This document shows positions 18,934 through 59,143 of a DNA stretch of 64,000 nucleotides, piece after piece; within the stretch, counting starts at the first letter, position 1, and every line of letters starts with the position of its first letter. The DNA is taken from contig NZ_LR134173.1 of assembly GCF_900635815.1 (NCBI RefSeq), positions 1,520,001 through 1,584,000 of the forward strand, given 5' to 3'. The notes beneath the pieces were generated by a model. The model had not been told where the DNA came from. It saw nothing but the letters and a program-made list of their open reading frames with translations, and did no database searches. A program made the translations under genes and the position numbers. Origin of the DNA: Legionella cherrii (GTDB lineage: Bacteria > Pseudomonadota > Gammaproteobacteria > Legionellales > Legionellaceae).

Positions 18934-19971
18934 ATGAGATTTATTCTCTTTATAATCTTCTTTTTCTTTTCTACATTGAATTATGCTCTAAGCTTACGCA
19001 CAGATGCTCCTGAGCGTTATGTGGTTCAACATGGGGATACTTTATGGAGCATCGCCAGTCGTTATCTGCATAATCCCTGGGAATGGAAAGAGCTTTGGCA
19101 TGCCAACCCTAAAATAAAAAATCCCAATCGATTGTATCCTGGAGCGGTTCTGGTTTTAGCCTATTACGAAAATAAACCTTACCTCAAAGTACTCTCGAAC
19201 GGCACTATCAAATTATCACCTAAAGCCCGTCCTATGCCCTTAGAGGACCCGGTGCCGCCAATTCCCCTAAATGAAATCAAGCCTTTTTTAAATGAATCCC
19301 TGATTTTGGATCAGGATGTCCTCAGTCGCGCTCCTTATATTGTTGCTTTAGTAGGGGAACATATGATGGGTGGCCAAGGCGATCAAGCTTGGGTTCAAGG
19401 GCTGCATCCTTCTCGAGAATTACCTACTGGGGGTATTCCCGCTTATTCTATTTTTAGAGGGGGAAAAAATTATGAGCATCCCAAAACCAGGGAGCTCTTG
19501 GGATATCGAGCAGATTTAGTAGGGTATGCTGAGTTAGTTGCGGGAGGAGAACCTGCCACCATTTTATTAACCAGTATTAATGAAGGGATTAAAGTTCAAG
19601 ACAGTGTTTTAATCAATGATAGTCCTGAGTTTAATTTACTTTTTGAACCTAAAGCGCCTCGATTTCTCGTGCGGGGATTTATTATTGATATGCCTGATGG
19701 GATGCCCAATGGGAATGTCCAGGAGGCAGTGGGTGGTGTGGTAGTAATCAGTTTGGGAGCACGTGAAGGATTGGAAGCAGGAGATGTACTGGGAATCTAT
19801 AGAGATTCAGGTACTGTCAGTGACCCTAGAAATAAACTGTTTCCTATCAAATTACCGCCTGAGCGTATTGGCGAACTTATGGTGTTTCGCGTATTTACTA
19901 AAACCAGTTTTGCCTTAATCGTTCGTTCTACTCGCGCTGTTTATTTATCAAACTTTGTGACTAATCCATGA
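18934..19971 (+). CDS. LysM-domain peptidoglycan-binding secreted protein
   Basis: This protein has 345 residues from the ATG at 18934, which has AAAGGA eight bases upstream; the longer frame from 18838 lacks a good start. A signal peptide (MRFILFIIFFFFSTLNYALS) precedes a LysM domain (RYVVQHGDTLWSIASRYL ... NRLYPGAVLVL, about residues 28-75) that binds peptidoglycan glycan. The remaining 270 residues are conserved in many gammaproteobacteria next to dprA but have no known function. It overlaps dprA by 4 bp (ATGA). Confidence 0.88.
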   Translation: MRFILFIIFFFFSTLNYALSLRTDAPERYVVQHGDTLWSIASRYLHNPWEWKELWHANPKIKNPNRLYPGAVLVLAYYENKPYLKVLSNGTIKLSPKARPMPLEDPVPPIPLNEIKPFLNESLILDQDVLSRAPYIVALVGEHMMGGQGDQAWVQGLHPSRELPTGGIPAYSIFRGGKNYEHPKTRELLGYRADLVGYAELVAGGEPATILLTSINEGIKVQDSVLINDSPEFNLLFEPKAPRFLVRGFIIDMPDGMPNGNVQEAVGGVVVISLGAREGLEAGDVLGIYRDSGTVSDPRNKLFPIKLPPERIGELMVFRVFTKTSFALIVRSTRAVYLSNFVTNP

Positions 19972-21041
19972 ATAATTTATCCTACTACCTCGCATTAAAT
20001 CGAATGGAAAGAGTGGGGCCGCGTACGGTTGCAACATTGCAAAAACGCTGGCCTGATCTGCAACAAATGTTCCAACTCTCAGCAAAAGAGCTTGAAGATG
20101 CGGGACTATCTCCTACTTTGGCACAAACCATAGCGGGTTTTGATTTGCATTTGATTCAAGAAGATCTCAGCTGGCTAGAGGCTGCTGATACGCATCATAT
20201 ACTGACTTGGGATTCGCCTGACTATCCCGCCTTATTGAAGGAAATTATCGATCCTCCTATCGTTTTGTACGTTAAAGGACAGCTTGCCTGCTTAAAACAA
20301 CCTAAATTAGCTGTGGTAGGCAGCCGTAATCCAACGATAACTGGCAGAGAAAATGCCCGCCAATTTGCAAAAGCTATCGCCTCGCATGGAGTGACCATTG
20401 TCAGTGGTTTAGCTTTAGGAATTGATGCTGAGGCTCATGAAGGATGTTTGGAGGCCGGAGGACAGACAATAGCTGTTTTAGGGACCGGAATTGATCGGAT
20501 TTATCCCTACCGACATCAGTCACTTGCGCAAAAAATTGAGCAAGTCGGGCTATTAATGAGCGAATTTCCTCTAAAAAGTCCTCCGACTGCTGGACATTTC
20601 CCACGAAGAAATCGTATAATAAGTGGTTTATCATTGTGCACTTTGGTTGTTGAGTCAGCAATAAAGAGTGGTTCTTTAATCACAGCACGAATGGCCCTGG
20701 AACAAAATCGAGATGTTTTGGCAATTCCTGGTTCCATTCATAACCCCCTGGCTCGAGGGTGTCATTACCTGTTGCAGCAAGGAGCTAAATTAGTCACTTC
20801 AGTTGCCGATGTTCTTGAAGAGTTGCGGATTGATTCAGAACAGCAAACAACTGATAAAGCGATTTTACCTCTTGCCAGCGGGAATAAAAACCTAGTAAAG
20901 TTCATTGGCTTTGAAATGACAACTGTTGATCAGATCATTTTACGTAGTGGATGCACCGTTGAGCAAGTCACTAGTGAGCTTGCAAAATTAGAATTAAATG
21001 GGGCTGTTGTATCTGTGCCCGGTGGCTATATGAGGTGTTAG
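19968..21041 (+). CDS. dprA: DNA-processing protein DprA (Smf)
   Basis: DprA protects incoming single-stranded DNA and loads RecA during natural transformation. The 357 residues contain an N-terminal helical segment, a Rossmann-like DNA-binding core (AVVGSRNPTITGRENA, IVSGLALGIDAEAHEGCLEAGGQTIAVLGTGIDRIYP, SEFPLKSPPTAGHFPRRNRIISGLS) and a C-terminal winged-helix region (DQIILRSGCTVEQVTSELAKLELNGAVV). It is the middle gene of a LysM-dprA-smg group. Legionella is naturally competent, so a working dprA is expected. Confidence 0.95.
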   Translation: MNNLSYYLALNRMERVGPRTVATLQKRWPDLQQMFQLSAKELEDAGLSPTLAQTIAGFDLHLIQEDLSWLEAADTHHILTWDSPDYPALLKEIIDPPIVLYVKGQLACLKQPKLAVVGSRNPTITGRENARQFAKAIASHGVTIVSGLALGIDAEAHEGCLEAGGQTIAVLGTGIDRIYPYRHQSLAQKIEQVGLLMSEFPLKSPPTAGHFPRRNRIISGLSLCTLVVESAIKSGSLITARMALEQNRDVLAIPGSIHNPLARGCHYLLQQGAKLVTSVADVLEELRIDSEQQTTDKAILPLASGNKNLVKFIGFEMTTVDQIILRSGCTVEQVTSELAKLELNGAVVSVPGGYMRC

Positions 21042-53435: not shown

Positions 53436-53554
53436 GAGAAAATTATCCAGCAGCCAGCCTGTACGCTGTATTGATTAATCAATGGTCCAAAATTAATACC
53501 AAAATAATTAACTCATGGTTGGGCATCTGGTGTTTTCGTCGGCTTGAGATGTGA

Positions 53555-53700
53555 TAAAAAGCGCAATTAATTCTGATGACTTATAAATGGCTATGGTGAA
53601 TTGTGTTCCGAGGAGGGCAGACCACATCCTTGTGGCAGTGCATCGTCCTTGATGCGTTCAAATTATCCTTATTAAGACATCCGCTGTCCTTCCTCGTACT
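53555..53700 (-). ncRNA. Candidate RsmY/RsmZ-type CsrA-sequestering small RNA, copy 1
   Basis: Read on the minus strand, a -10 box TATGCT (53712-53707) suggests a start near 53700. The RNA opens with AGTACGAGGAAGGACAG and has seven GGA triplets in its first 95 bases. The hairpin CCACAAGGATGTGG (53635-53622) is an exact ACARGGAUGU CsrA-binding consensus with GGA in the loop. A second hairpin, GCATCAAGGACGATGC (53655-53640), again has AAGGA in the loop. CGAGGA (53696-53691) and TCCTCG (53614-53609) close the structure. A T-run at 53560-53556 may mark the 3' end. This is the layout of CsrA sponges; identity is inferred. Confidence 0.65.
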
Positions 53701-53757
53701 GATTCAAGCATAGCGAATAATTTTAATGAGTCATACTCCAAATAGCGCATAATCATG

Positions 53758-53771
53758 TAAGAAATCTCTTA
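53758..53771. promoter_or_regulatory. LetA-box-like palindrome upstream of small RNA copy 1
   Basis: TAAGAAATCTCTTA differs at one position from TNAGAAATTTCTNA, the site reported for the LetA response regulator upstream of rsmY and rsmZ in Legionella pneumophila. It lies about 50 bp upstream of the -10 box of the small RNA. The same box is present in copy 2. Confidence 0.65.
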
Positions 53772-53782
53772 ATTTGAGTTTG

Positions 53783-54001
53783 ATGCCCTCAAATGGGCCC
53801 GAATTTCTTGCAAAAGAAATTGTTAAAAACCTCACAGTGATTGCCCAATATGCTCCGCATACTTTATCAAAGGCATTGAATGCAGCGATGAAAGCACCCA
53901 ATGGTTCCACACTTATCAAAGAGGCACTGTTCGCTAAGAATAAGATGGGGTTAAAAATAATAGAACGTCATGCACCCCAATGCCTGACTCAGGTACATTA
54001 A
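53783..54001 (+). CDS. Small helical protein of unknown function
   Basis: This frame from ATG 53783 gives 72 residues, rich in Ala, Lys and Leu with amphipathic helices (EFLAKEIVKNLTVIAQYAPHTLSKALNAAMKAP ... LKIIERHAPQCL). It begins inside the direct repeat, close to the LetA-like box, and has no visible Shine-Dalgarno. The style resembles the repeat unit of a larger helical protein, so it may be a remnant. Confidence 0.4.
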   Translation: MPSNGPEFLAKEIVKNLTVIAQYAPHTLSKALNAAMKAPNGSTLIKEALFAKNKMGLKIIERHAPQCLTQVH

Positions 54002-54157
54002 ATGATTCAAGATAATCCAGACAAACCTGTCGAAGGTCAGCAACCTCCCAGCATTGTCCCTACAAAAATGAGCTTCTGGGAACGGAACCGAATTTCGACC
54101 ACTGGGCTGACTGCAACAGTGGTTGGAGTCACCTCATGGTTTGCGACCAAAAAATAA
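54002..54157 (+). CDS. Small C-terminally anchored peptide (51 residues)
   Basis: An ATG directly after the previous stop codon opens a 51-codon frame. The product has a Pro/Gln-rich N-terminal half (DNPDKPVEGQQPPSIVPTK) and a short hydrophobic C-terminal segment (TTGLTATVVGVTSWFATKK). Coupling to the preceding frame is possible. No family is recognised. Confidence 0.4.
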   Translation: MIQDNPDKPVEGQQPPSIVPTKMSFWERNRISTTGLTATVVGVTSWFATKK

Positions 54158-54417
54158 GCAAGTACTGCTTTTTTATTGAAATGAGAAAGGATTTCAATAA
54201 AAAATGAAATAGCTTATCGCCTCAATTCAACTGGCTAATGCAACTTACTGAATTTAAGTGTGATGGCCAAATAACCTATTCGGCGTTTTCCCTTTCTGGT
54301 ATGGTTCTTTCGTTCAGCGTGATAATTAGCCCAGATTGAAGTACAACTCTTGGCGCTTTTGGACAGGGCTGTCTTTTTTTTATATTATTAACATCATATT
54401 GACCCATAAGTTCGAAC

Positions 54418-55374
54418 GTGAAATTATTTCTAGACCAAATTTATACAATTCTTGCCGCGATGCGGGATGTTGCGACCGCACAAGGAAAGCAATCTCTAAC
54501 GGACATACAAGCCAGATCAATTAAAGCACTATATAAATATGTTTTTTCCCACCAGGATATATTAGCTTTAAATAGCCTCCCTTCAATTAAACCGGAACAA
54601 TTTCCCAATTATTTTTCTTCAGAAGTGATTGCTGAATATGCATTACGTTTTCTTACCATGGCGTCATTAATGGATGGGGAAATTGATCATGAAAAAATTA
54701 AAACCTTGTTCCAATATGCCAAAGCTGTCGATATTTATCCCCATTATTTACTGCAATTACAAAAAACTTTAGAGAATGATATCAATTGGTTAATCAGAGA
54801 CATAACCCTTAAAAATCTTGAAAGCTTCGATTTATTTCCTAATTTACAAAGAGAGGAGGATATTGACAAATGGCTCTTTCCCTATCGTGAGCACCATGAT
54901 CCTGCTTTAGTAGCCAGGTATGAGCGTTTACAGAAATTACCGAAGGATTCTTTTGGTTATGGGATTTGGAAGCAATTTAAAGACAATAAGTACTTCTTTC
55001 CAGGGGAAGCAGAGGGGGCAAATTATGCCTTTATTATGCCTCATGATTCACTGCATGTTTTAAGCGGATATGATACTACTCCTTTCGGCGAATTATTAGT
55101 TTCTACCTTTACATCAACCATGCTTGAAAAGAATGCGATGGAAGGACATATCATCCCTGTATTTTATTCTTTTTATTTGGGTATTAAAATTAATAATCTT
55201 GCCGGGGCATCACAATGCAAAATGAACCCGGAAGCGTTTTGGGAGGCCTGGTATCGAGGTTCGCAAATGCAAATTAATCTCTTTGCGCATGACTGGTCTT
55301 TATGGGAAGTTGCTGAAATACCATTAAGTACGCTTCGCCAAAAATATTGTGTATTACCCAAAACTATTGAATAA
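54418..55374 (+). CDS. Coq4-like protein with TerB-like N-terminal domain
   Basis: The C-terminal half of this 318-residue protein contains IMPHDSLHVLSGYDTTPFGELLV, close to the HDxxHVLTGY metal-binding signature of Coq4, the ubiquinone-biosynthesis organiser. The N-terminal part (EYALRFLTMASLMDGEIDHEKIKTLFQYAKAV, about 67-100) resembles a TerB-like helical domain. The combination suggests a lipid or quinone-related role, but that is inference. The start is GTG 54418 with no clear ribosome site. It lies between the two direct repeats. Confidence 0.65.
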   Translation: MKLFLDQIYTILAAMRDVATAQGKQSLTDIQARSIKALYKYVFSHQDILALNSLPSIKPEQFPNYFSSEVIAEYALRFLTMASLMDGEIDHEKIKTLFQYAKAVDIYPHYLLQLQKTLENDINWLIRDITLKNLESFDLFPNLQREEDIDKWLFPYREHHDPALVARYERLQKLPKDSFGYGIWKQFKDNKYFFPGEAEGANYAFIMPHDSLHVLSGYDTTPFGELLVSTFTSTMLEKNAMEGHIIPVFYSFYLGIKINNLAGASQCKMNPEAFWEAWYRGSQMQINLFAHDWSLWEVAEIPLSTLRQKYCVLPKTIE

Positions 55375-55527
55375 GGGTAGGGTAAGTAAGGTTGCAACAT
55401 CACAAAATAAACGTCTGCATTGAACCAGTCTGTTTCAATAAATACTTATTAAGTCTGATTACTGGTCTTATCGTATCTTTGGTTTAGGAGCCTTTTGATC
55501 GTAGTGGTTTTGTTGGCGTGAGCTGAT

Positions 55528-55669
55528 AAAAAGGGCAATAAATTCTGATGAATTTTAATGCCATGTTGAATTGTGTTCCGAGGAGGCAGACCACATCCTT
55601 GTGGTAGTGCATCGTCCTTGATGCGTTCAAATTATCCTTATTAAGACATCCGCTGTCCTTCCTCGTACT
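55528..55669 (-). ncRNA. Candidate RsmY/RsmZ-type CsrA-sequestering small RNA, copy 2
   Basis: This copy has the same elements as copy 1: -10 TATGCT at 55681-55676, predicted start near 55669, the CsrA-consensus hairpin CCACAAGGATGTGG, the AAGGA-loop hairpin, and the closing stem CGAGGA/TCCTCG. Here the 3' end is clearer: GGCATTAAA pairs with TTATTGCC and is followed by CTTTTT (55562-55528), giving an RNA of about 142 nt. Substitutions between the copies spare the GGA loops and stems. It lies upstream of, and on the same strand as, nothing but intergenic DNA. Confidence 0.65.
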
Positions 55670-55726
55670 GATTCAAGCATAGCGAATAATTTTAATGAGT
55701 CATACTCAAAATAGCGCATAATCATG

Positions 55727-55740
55727 TAAGAAATCTCTTA
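55727..55740. promoter_or_regulatory. LetA-box-like palindrome upstream of small RNA copy 2
   Basis: TAAGAAATCTCTTA is identical to the box upstream of copy 1 and at the same distance (about 46 bp) from the -10 box. It differs at one position from the reported LetA site TNAGAAATTTCTNA. Confidence 0.65.
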
Positions 55741-56079
55741 ATTTGAGTTCGAGGCTCTCAAATGGACTGCTCATTTTAATTAAGCTGAGGAGTGTTAAAG
55801 CAAGCGAGGCTGGGCTGAAAAGCCAGCAAATGCCTCTGATAACTAGCCTCATACTAATGCTCAGGATTGTGGGCTGGGCTTTTCAGACCAGCCTACGCTC
55901 GCAGTCTTCAATTAAAAATTGCAGACCGTTGCTACGCTTGCTTTGTTTAAATCAAAATCTTAGACATTTTGGCAAAAAACAAGCATTGATATTCAAGAAT
56001 ATCTGTAGTTACGCTACGCAGTCGTTTTAAATTGGAACAAGATGGATGGGTTCTGTGAAGAAGCCGCGAAACGTAGAAG

Positions 56080-58530: not shown

Positions 58531-58761
58531 TTAACCATAACCTATCCAAGATACATCATCAGGCTCTGTCAAAAATTTTATAAAAGACACAGGCGGTCTT
58601 TGTTTAGGGAGTCGCGATGCGACAAGCTCATAAAACTGCCTCCAAGCAGGCACATATCCCTCATTTGCCTTTGCCTCAATCAATAAATGCGAGTCTATAG
58701 ATAAATCACAGGTTATTGATACATCCCCGCGCTGCTGTATTGGAAATTTCTTAATTATTTT
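58531..58761 (-). pseudogene. C-terminal gene remnant
   Basis: A frame open between stops encodes about 76 residues with coding character (GDVSITCDLSIDSHLLIEA, then VPAWRQFYELVASRLPK, then FLTEPDDVSWIGYG) but has no start codon. It appears to be the tail of a lost gene. I cannot name the family. The remaining sequence from 58,762 to 59,143 shows no convincing gene. Confidence 0.4.
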
Positions 58762-59143
58762 TTAGAAAAACTTCAATTAGAGTAGTACTCGATGAATTTC
58801 ATTGAAATGCTTGACTGGGTGTTTAATTTGATGACACAATGTTTTTATCTTTGATATTTCTGTTATCTGAAATGCAACAAACACGCTTACAACAAATGAT
58901 GATGATGCGCTGCCTGGACACTGTTGTCGAGGTTGGGCGGAATTATTTGTAAACGGCGCTATCAAACTAATCCTCTCAATACCAGTGTCCAGGTTTCGAG
59001 ACACTCACTCTCAATCTTATAAAGCGCTCAAATTGAAATTTGGTGGTAAAAATTCAACTTAATATTTTTTGCTGCTGAATTTAAGCCCAAAAAACATCCA
59101 TAAATCAACGCGGGTTAATTTGGGGAAAAATGAGGCAATTATC

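What the first reader, a model, noticed from the sequence alone, without database searches (positions are those of the whole stretch)
53555..55740. Two near-identical candidate CsrA-sponge small RNAs with LetA-like boxes
Two 245-bp direct repeats each encode, on the minus strand, an RNA with seven GGA triplets. It has a hairpin exactly matching the CsrA consensus (ACAAGGAUGU with GGA in the loop), a second AAGGA-loop hairpin and a closing stem. Each has a TATGCT -10 box and, about 46 bp further upstream, TAAGAAATCTCTTA, one mismatch from the LetA site of rsmY/rsmZ. Known Legionella pneumophila has one rsmY and one rsmZ at separate loci; a duplicated pair flanking a small gene group would be a new dosage or paralogue arrangement in the switch that controls virulence and motility.
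Basis: partly seen in the sequence, partly recalled or inferred. Interest (0 to 1): 0.9.

Follow-up and report, generated by a model that had tools for sequence, protein, structure and literature searches.

The report
Duplicated CsrA-sponge small RNA genes
This Legionella carries two near-identical genes for a small RNA that probably soaks up the regulator CsrA, and they belong to an uncatalogued, often multi-copy and sometimes plasmid-borne family in the genus, so the capacity of this lifestyle switch seems to vary by lineage.

Summary
Two direct repeats (267 columns, 91.8%; inner 181 nt, 97%) each carry, on the minus strand, a ~95-nt GGA-rich RNA gene with a LetA-type palindrome and a TATGCT box. 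Comparison makes a CsrA-sponge reading very likely: a covariance model (R1) matches 36 of 45 held genomes of the genus (89 matches); 71 of 72 distinct copies have a LetA-like box at the same place within 5 nt (shuffled controls 3 of 1440); 10 of 18 base pairs show two-sided changes; GGA sits in three conserved hairpin loops.

The copies are not the rsmY type (present once elsewhere in this genome), and more than one copy is common. The pair lies in a dispersed 'type A' branch that also occurs on L. lytica and L. fallonii plasmids; a 'type B' copy sits at 1.107 Mb. One relative (G032) shares the pair; another (G024) seems to have lost copy 2. No Rfam family matches. The L. fallonii plasmid carries such RNAs and a csrA paralogue. 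Transcription, LetA activation and CsrA binding are inferred, not shown; copy 1 lacks a convincing terminator. Bench tests were referred.

The parts
53606..53700 (-). sRNA copy 1, conserved core (predicted 5' end 53700; transcript may run on to about 53556)
   Evidence: R1 match 97.0 bits; core folds z -4.2
53676..53688 (-). hairpin 1 of copy 1, GACA-GCGGA-UGUC
   Evidence: in the family consensus; not in the single-sequence MFE
53640..53655 (-). hairpin 2 of copy 1, GCAUC-AAGGAC-GAUGC
   Evidence: MFE and consensus
53622..53635 (-). hairpin 3 of copy 1, CCACA-AGGA-UGUGG
   Evidence: MFE and consensus
53691..53696 (-). 5' strand of the closing stem of copy 1 (pairs with 53609-53614)
53707..53712 (-). 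TATGCT, predicted -10 box of copy 1
   Evidence: sequence; a TA(T/A)NNT hexamer lies within 40 nt upstream of hairpin 1 in 70 of 72 copies, no control made
53758..53771 (-). LetA-like palindrome of copy 1
   Evidence: one mismatch to TNAGAAATTTCTNA; position conserved
55576..55669 (-). sRNA copy 2, conserved core (predicted 5' end 55669; transcript may end at the hairpin plus T run near 55528)
   Evidence: R1 match 101.7 bits; core folds z -5.1; 3' hairpin -8.0 kcal/mol, z -2.3
55676..55681 (-). TATGCT, predicted -10 box of copy 2
   Evidence: sequence
55727..55740 (-). LetA-like palindrome of copy 2
54418..55374 (+). 318-aa ORF between the copies; a relative lies next to a type A sRNA in L. 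steigerwaltii at another site
   Evidence: W 54341-55409, 94.9% to L173; no Pfam or NCBIfam match
53774..54157 (+). short ORFs that resemble parts of a longer gene seen whole in G024 (a remnant; not mended here)

Best explanation
Each repeat is a complete gene for a Csr/Rsm-type decoy RNA. Inferred mechanism: on starvation the LetS/LetA system is activated; LetA binds the 14-bp palindrome 58-71 nt upstream of the predicted start and turns on transcription from the TATGCT promoter; the ~95-145-nt RNA displays GGA in three hairpin loops (plus linker and stem GGAs) and takes up several CsrA subunits, freeing CsrA-repressed mRNAs. Two copies, with the type B copy and the rsmY-type RNA, would raise the ceiling of CsrA titration. 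Shown here: gene anatomy, conserved promoter box and spacing, covarying structure, conserved GGA loops, presence of CsrA and a UvrY/LetA-type regulator in the genome. Inferred: transcription, LetA binding, CsrA binding, dosage effect; LetS was not searched. Evolution: a dispersed branch of a genus-wide family; the pair probably existed before this genome and G032 parted, with a promoter tract that looks homogenised within each genome.
For: Family: 35 of 45 genomes by blastn, 36 of 45 by model R1, 89 matches. LetA-like box with at most 2 mismatches and at -79 to -83 from hairpin 1 in 71 of 72 distinct copies; shuffled upstreams meet both in 3 of 1440 (with position left free 51 of 1440). Structure: on 68 distinct rows 98.9% of cells pair, 10 of 18 pairs change on both sides (shuffles 3.8), 41 such cells (shuffles 6.6), 0 of 500 shuffles reach either; on the MAFFT alignment A1, 5 of 18 pairs. 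The GGA of all three loops is invariant in A1. CsrA 3 matches, UvrY/LetA-type 1 match in G000. LetA acting on rsm promoters and Rsm RNAs taking up CsrA are published for L. pneumophila (passages).
Against: No transcript data were available. Terminator scan 0 found, 2.5 expected by chance; promoter scan at chance. Copy 1's 3' hairpin is weak (-3.2 kcal/mol, z -0.8) and its longer form folds little better than shuffles (12 of 200). The single-sequence MFE lacks hairpin 1 in both copies. Rfam has no matching family. Alignment A4 was fitted to the model, and A1 and the 72-copy set were picked with a pattern that imposes hairpin 1 (the 72 also hairpin 3), so part of the conservation is built in; the promoter box and hairpin 2 were not imposed. 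sRNA count does not follow CsrA count (rho 0.09, p 0.59, 41 genomes).
Confidence: 0.86

Rival explanations
1. The two copies are dosage relics: one works, the other is a decaying duplicate without its own function.
For: Copy 1 has a weaker 3' hairpin than copy 2. Relatives lose copies: G024 lacks the second copy but keeps its upstream flank; G005 and G021 keep promoter remnants of type A copies whose RNA part is missing.
Against: Both window copies keep 7 GGAs, the LetA-like box, the TATGCT box and the closing stem; G032 keeps both too.
Confidence: 0.3
2. The repeats are the ends of a mobile element, and the GGA/LetA resemblance is incidental.
For: Type A copies lie at several unlike sites, near transposase or integrase genes in G008, G006 and the L. 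fallonii plasmid.
Against: The part shared by nearly all copies is the promoter and RNA (about -71 to +100), with no fixed outer boundary (terminal inverted repeats were not searched for); other branches keep the same RNA and box in other surroundings; compensatory changes.
Confidence: 0.04
3. The RNAs act mainly by base-pairing with mRNAs rather than by taking up CsrA.
For: Many bacterial sRNAs act so (general knowledge); not tested here.
Against: What is conserved is GGA in hairpin loops and the stems, while linkers vary.
Confidence: 0.06

Closest known systems
RsmY / RsmZ of Legionella pneumophila (Sahr 2009; Rasis and Segal 2009; read neither, seen through passages of PMC5338858, PMC5928044, PMC5780407)
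   Same: LetA-dependent, GGA-bearing decoy RNAs in a genus with CsrA and LetA/S
   Different: The RNA that I take for rsmY is a separate family, one match in each of 43 of 45 genomes, and R1 hardly scores it. The RsmZ sequence was not obtained, so its relation to R1 is open.
RsmX of L. pneumophila
   Same: Extra LetA-dependent sponge RNA that is patchy between strains
rsmX-1/rsmX-2 of Pseudomonas brassicacearum; up to five rsmX copies in P. syringae (PMC7911923, abstract and section 4.1)
   Same: Amplification of an Rsm RNA by duplication under the Gac-type regulator
   Different: Another family; plasmid carriage of the RNA was not described in the parts that I read.
Plasmid-borne CsrA homologues such as RsmQ (PMC9928087, passages)
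   Same: Mobile DNA entering the host Csr/Rsm switch; 21 of 29 Legionellaceae plasmids there carry such a protein gene
   Different: There the plasmid brings the protein; here plasmids bring RNA genes of the antagonist type.

Membership tests
Csr/Rsm decoy sRNA (functional class) | Several GGA motifs, mostly in hairpin loops | tested here: met
   7 GGA per core; GGA in three conserved hairpin loops
Csr/Rsm decoy sRNA (functional class) | Conserved secondary structure | tested here: met
   10 of 18 pairs with changes on both sides, 0 of 500 shuffles; 5 of 18 on A1
Csr/Rsm decoy sRNA (functional class) | Promoter with a GacA/LetA-type palindrome | tested here: met
   71 of 72 copies at one spacing, controls 3 of 1440
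Csr/Rsm decoy sRNA (functional class) | Binds and titrates CsrA in the cell | not testable with these tools
   no expression or binding data
Csr/Rsm decoy sRNA (functional class) | Ends at an intrinsic terminator | tested here: inconclusive
   copy 2 hairpin -8.0 kcal/mol plus T run, copy 1 -3.2; scan 0 hits
Rfam RsmY, RsmZ/PrrB, CsrB, CsrC families (names recalled) | Match to a covariance model | tested here: not met
   none at gathering; up to E 10 only five matches to other families, none over the RNA cores
Legionella rsmY type | Sequence homology | tested here: not met
   rsmY-type RNA is a different locus at 777 kb; R1 scores it 15.5 bits, E 0.22
L. pneumophila rsmZ / rsmX | Sequence homology | tested here: inconclusive
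   no sequence with a verified name was obtained; the three-family census leaves it open

The most novel reading that the evidence does not exclude
CsrA-sponge RNA genes wired to the host's LetA are mobile cargo in Legionella. Type A (R1) and R2 RNAs sit on plasmids and at dispersed chromosomal sites, on the L. fallonii plasmid together with a csrA paralogue, so mobile DNA carries both the brake (CsrA protein) and its release (sponge RNA) and can reset the replicative/transmissive switch of its host, or time its own transfer to it. The window pair would be a chromosomally settled, duplicated example.
Probability: 0.35. Interest if true: 0.8.

Novelty: new variant of a known kind. Interest (0 to 1): 0.6.

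Why it matters
The LetA-Rsm-CsrA switch decides between multiplication and transmission in Legionella, and what I found in print rests on two or three RNAs of L. pneumophila. A census of three families gives 1 to 10 such genes per genome (175 matches in 45 genomes, weak ones included, missed ones not), so the switch's capacity may differ widely between lineages and may be moved by plasmids. That opens the old question of why bacteria keep several sibling sponge RNAs to comparison across a whole genus, and gives draft models for families with no Rfam entry.

Tried and rejected
Rfam search: nothing. Plain promoter/terminator scan: at or below chance. A link between sRNA number and CsrA paralogue number: none (R1 rho -0.04, p 0.80; R2 0.26, p 0.10; total 0.09, p 0.59; 41 genomes at least 90% complete). 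A mobile element with fixed ends carrying the RNA: pairwise comparison gave no fixed outer boundary. Integration of a circle by recombination between sRNA copies: does not explain the place of the remnant gene. Search for an rsmZ in G033 by LetA-box patterns, the R1 and R2 models and a neighbour gene: none found; G033 was not proven to be L. pneumophila. Relatives of the 318-aa ORF in Pfam, NCBIfam and PDB sequences: nothing significant (best PDB E 0.075, a globin).

What was left out of counts: A1 used 43 distinct cores picked with a pattern for hairpin 1. The 72-copy set took held loci that passed a hairpin 1 plus hairpin 3 pattern and at least 4 GGAs; before that I dropped 28 loci of other organisms (of the 63 hits of the pattern scan, which thus also hits by chance) and the E. 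coli locus. A2 used 24 of 27 found sequences. A4 took 70 matches from 68 sources that I chose. A3 was a faulty trial alignment and was not used.

Full report
What is there. The window is bases 1520001-1584000 of a single-contig 3.73 Mb genome; relatives of this RNA that bear names are Legionella, Fluoribacter gormanii and one Legionellaceae MAG. Two repeats, 53530-53796 and 55504-55765, are 91.8% alike over 267 columns, 97% in the inner 181 nt. Each holds, on the minus strand, a LetA-like palindrome, a TATGCT box and a GGA-rich RNA core of 94-95 nt. The cores fold far better than shuffles (z -4.2 and -5.1) and hold 7 GGAs each; two other stretches of the window, on the plus strand, are as rich in GGA. 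Copy 2 ends in a hairpin followed by a T run; copy 1's is weak, and with its 3' part copy 1 folds little better than shuffles (12 of 200). Hairpin 1 is not in the lowest-energy fold of either window copy, but is in the alignment consensus.

The family. Blastn with copy 1 and its promoter finds matches in 35 of 45 held genomes of the genus. A covariance model from 43 cores (R1) matches 36 of 45 genomes with 89 matches and 49 of 143 genomes of the family, the same genus included. These searches used stricter filters and may miss weak members. Of 72 distinct copies in held loci, 71 have a LetA-like box with at most two mismatches within a 5-nt range of positions; shuffled upstreams do so in 3 of 1440 cases. 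The exception is the L. tucsonensis copy in L017. On 68 distinct rows, 98.9% of cells pair and 10 of 18 pairs change on both sides, against 3.8 in shuffles; that alignment was fitted to the model, and on the MAFFT alignment A1 the number is 5 of 18. A MAFFT realignment of the same rows recovers the three hairpins, not the closing stem.

Census. A tree of 73 sequences puts both window copies in a supported branch of 23 ('type A', 96/94), apart from a branch ('type B') that holds this genome's third copy at 1106586-1106675. Type B lies next to the same ankyrin-repeat gene in G000, G032 and L. anisa, and near it with one ORF between in F. gormanii; in L. longbeachae the relative of that gene is on another contig than the R1 copy, so the synteny is not genus-wide. 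The type B copy of this genome has a clear 3' hairpin (-13.7 kcal/mol). A second LetA-box RNA type is found in 43 of 45 genomes, one match each, within 14 kb of the contig start in nine genomes, though at 777 kb here and 2.03 Mb in G032. I take it for rsmY because the Paris rsmY is labelled lppnc0001; that is an inference. A third family (R2, TTTGGCGCAGC type) matches 18 of 45 genomes with 43 matches at E up to 0.01, the last ones weak. By these three searches this genome has four such genes (3 R1, 0 R2, 1 rsmY type), and L. fallonii, L. lytica, L. rowbothamii and L. saoudiensis ten each.

The pair. G032 has the same order: adenosine deaminase gene, 232-aa ORF, sRNA, another ORF (237 aa, not in the window), a relative of the 318-aa ORF, sRNA, GGDEF-EAL gene. 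G024 has one copy there; the stretch matching 54308-55738 (318-aa ORF and copy 2) is missing while the flank just upstream of copy 2's LetA box remains, so loss fits better than late gain. Among the four sequences (two genomes, two copies), four promoter sites are shared within a genome and none by position, while after the RNA eight are shared by position, none within a genome and one crosswise; 35 further variable sites are uninformative. The split 4:0 against 0:8 has an exact chance of 1 in 495 (worked out by hand). This suggests old duplicates with a homogenised promoter tract, on few sites. In L. steigerwaltii (G040) an sRNA and a relative of the 318-aa ORF (94.9% DNA identity over 1069 columns) lie together at another place.

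Dispersal. Type A copies in F. gormanii, L. quateirensis, L. moravica, G006 and L. steelei share 319-337 columns with copy 1. By the ORF comparison of the 20-kb loci, four of these five share no gene family with the compared part of the window; G006 has a relative of the 59069-60499 gene in matching orientation and two families in common with the G024 locus, so it may be the same region rearranged. Three plasmid records carry type A copies: two of L. lytica and the conjugative plasmid of L. fallonii; one L. lytica plasmid also shares a 191-column stretch with window 58810-58996. One type A copy is in a genome of another genus, G136, a draft of 180 contigs. R2-type RNAs are on five plasmid records, four typed conjugative; the two L. 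longbeachae ones that I read have an intact LetA-like box. The L. fallonii plasmid carries an R1 RNA, an R2 RNA and a gene annotated carbon storage regulator beside its transfer genes, plus a second CsrA match. The smaller L. lytica plasmid carries an R1 RNA, a weak R2 match and a CsrA match that the table of PLSDB does not list. No fixed ends were found, so I call these genes dispersed, not transposons.

Mechanism. From published L. pneumophila work (passages): LetA binds and activates rsm promoters; Rsm RNAs take up CsrA. The genome here has three CsrA matches (the best 91.6 bits) and one UvrY/LetA-type regulator at 52% identity; LetS was not searched. On that basis the RNAs most likely work as sponges under LetA. 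Every functional step is inferred.

Literature. Among the titles and abstract starts listed by searches (capped lists of an open-access library) I saw no paper on multi-copy or plasmid-borne Rsm RNAs in Legionella. Sahr 2009 was not held and most subscription papers are missing, so absence in print is not established. Amplified Rsm RNAs are known in Pseudomonas and plasmid CsrA homologues in Legionellaceae. Hence: new variant of a known kind.

Noticed in passing
L152 (G033:C1 about 1768668), L287 (G015), L286 (G010), L290 (G006): A TTGAGAAATTTCTTAC LetA-like box lies upstream of a short gene; in L152 the gene is ProQ/FINO family (PF04352, E 3.6e-30), and the other three show a similar start. 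A possible direct LetA target that is not a sponge RNA.
   Followed up: partly
L294-L323, alignment A2: R2: another LetA-box RNA family (TTTGGCGCAGC...CAGCTGCGCACAGGCAC) in 18 of 45 genomes and on Legionella plasmids; no Rfam match for the one locus tested, L208.
   Followed up: partly
L027 (G005), L030 (G021): LetA box and promoter remnants of type A copies whose RNA part is missing.
   Followed up: partly
L236-L240 (L. fallonii chromosome, G007:C1): Five copies of an own R1 branch in one chromosome, apparently a lineage-specific amplification.
   Followed up: no
window 58740-58753: TTGGAAATTTCTTA, a third site with one mismatch to the LetA consensus; no R1 match there.
   Followed up: no
window 19688-19806 and 20395-20536, plus strand: Two further stretches with 7 or more GGA in 95 nt; what they are was not looked at.
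   Followed up: no
window 54418-55374: 318-aa ORF without Pfam or NCBIfam match that keeps company with type A sRNAs at two unlike sites; its PDB hits are not significant, a globin at E 0.075 and a putative ubiquinone biosynthesis protein at E 0.22 among them.
   Followed up: partly
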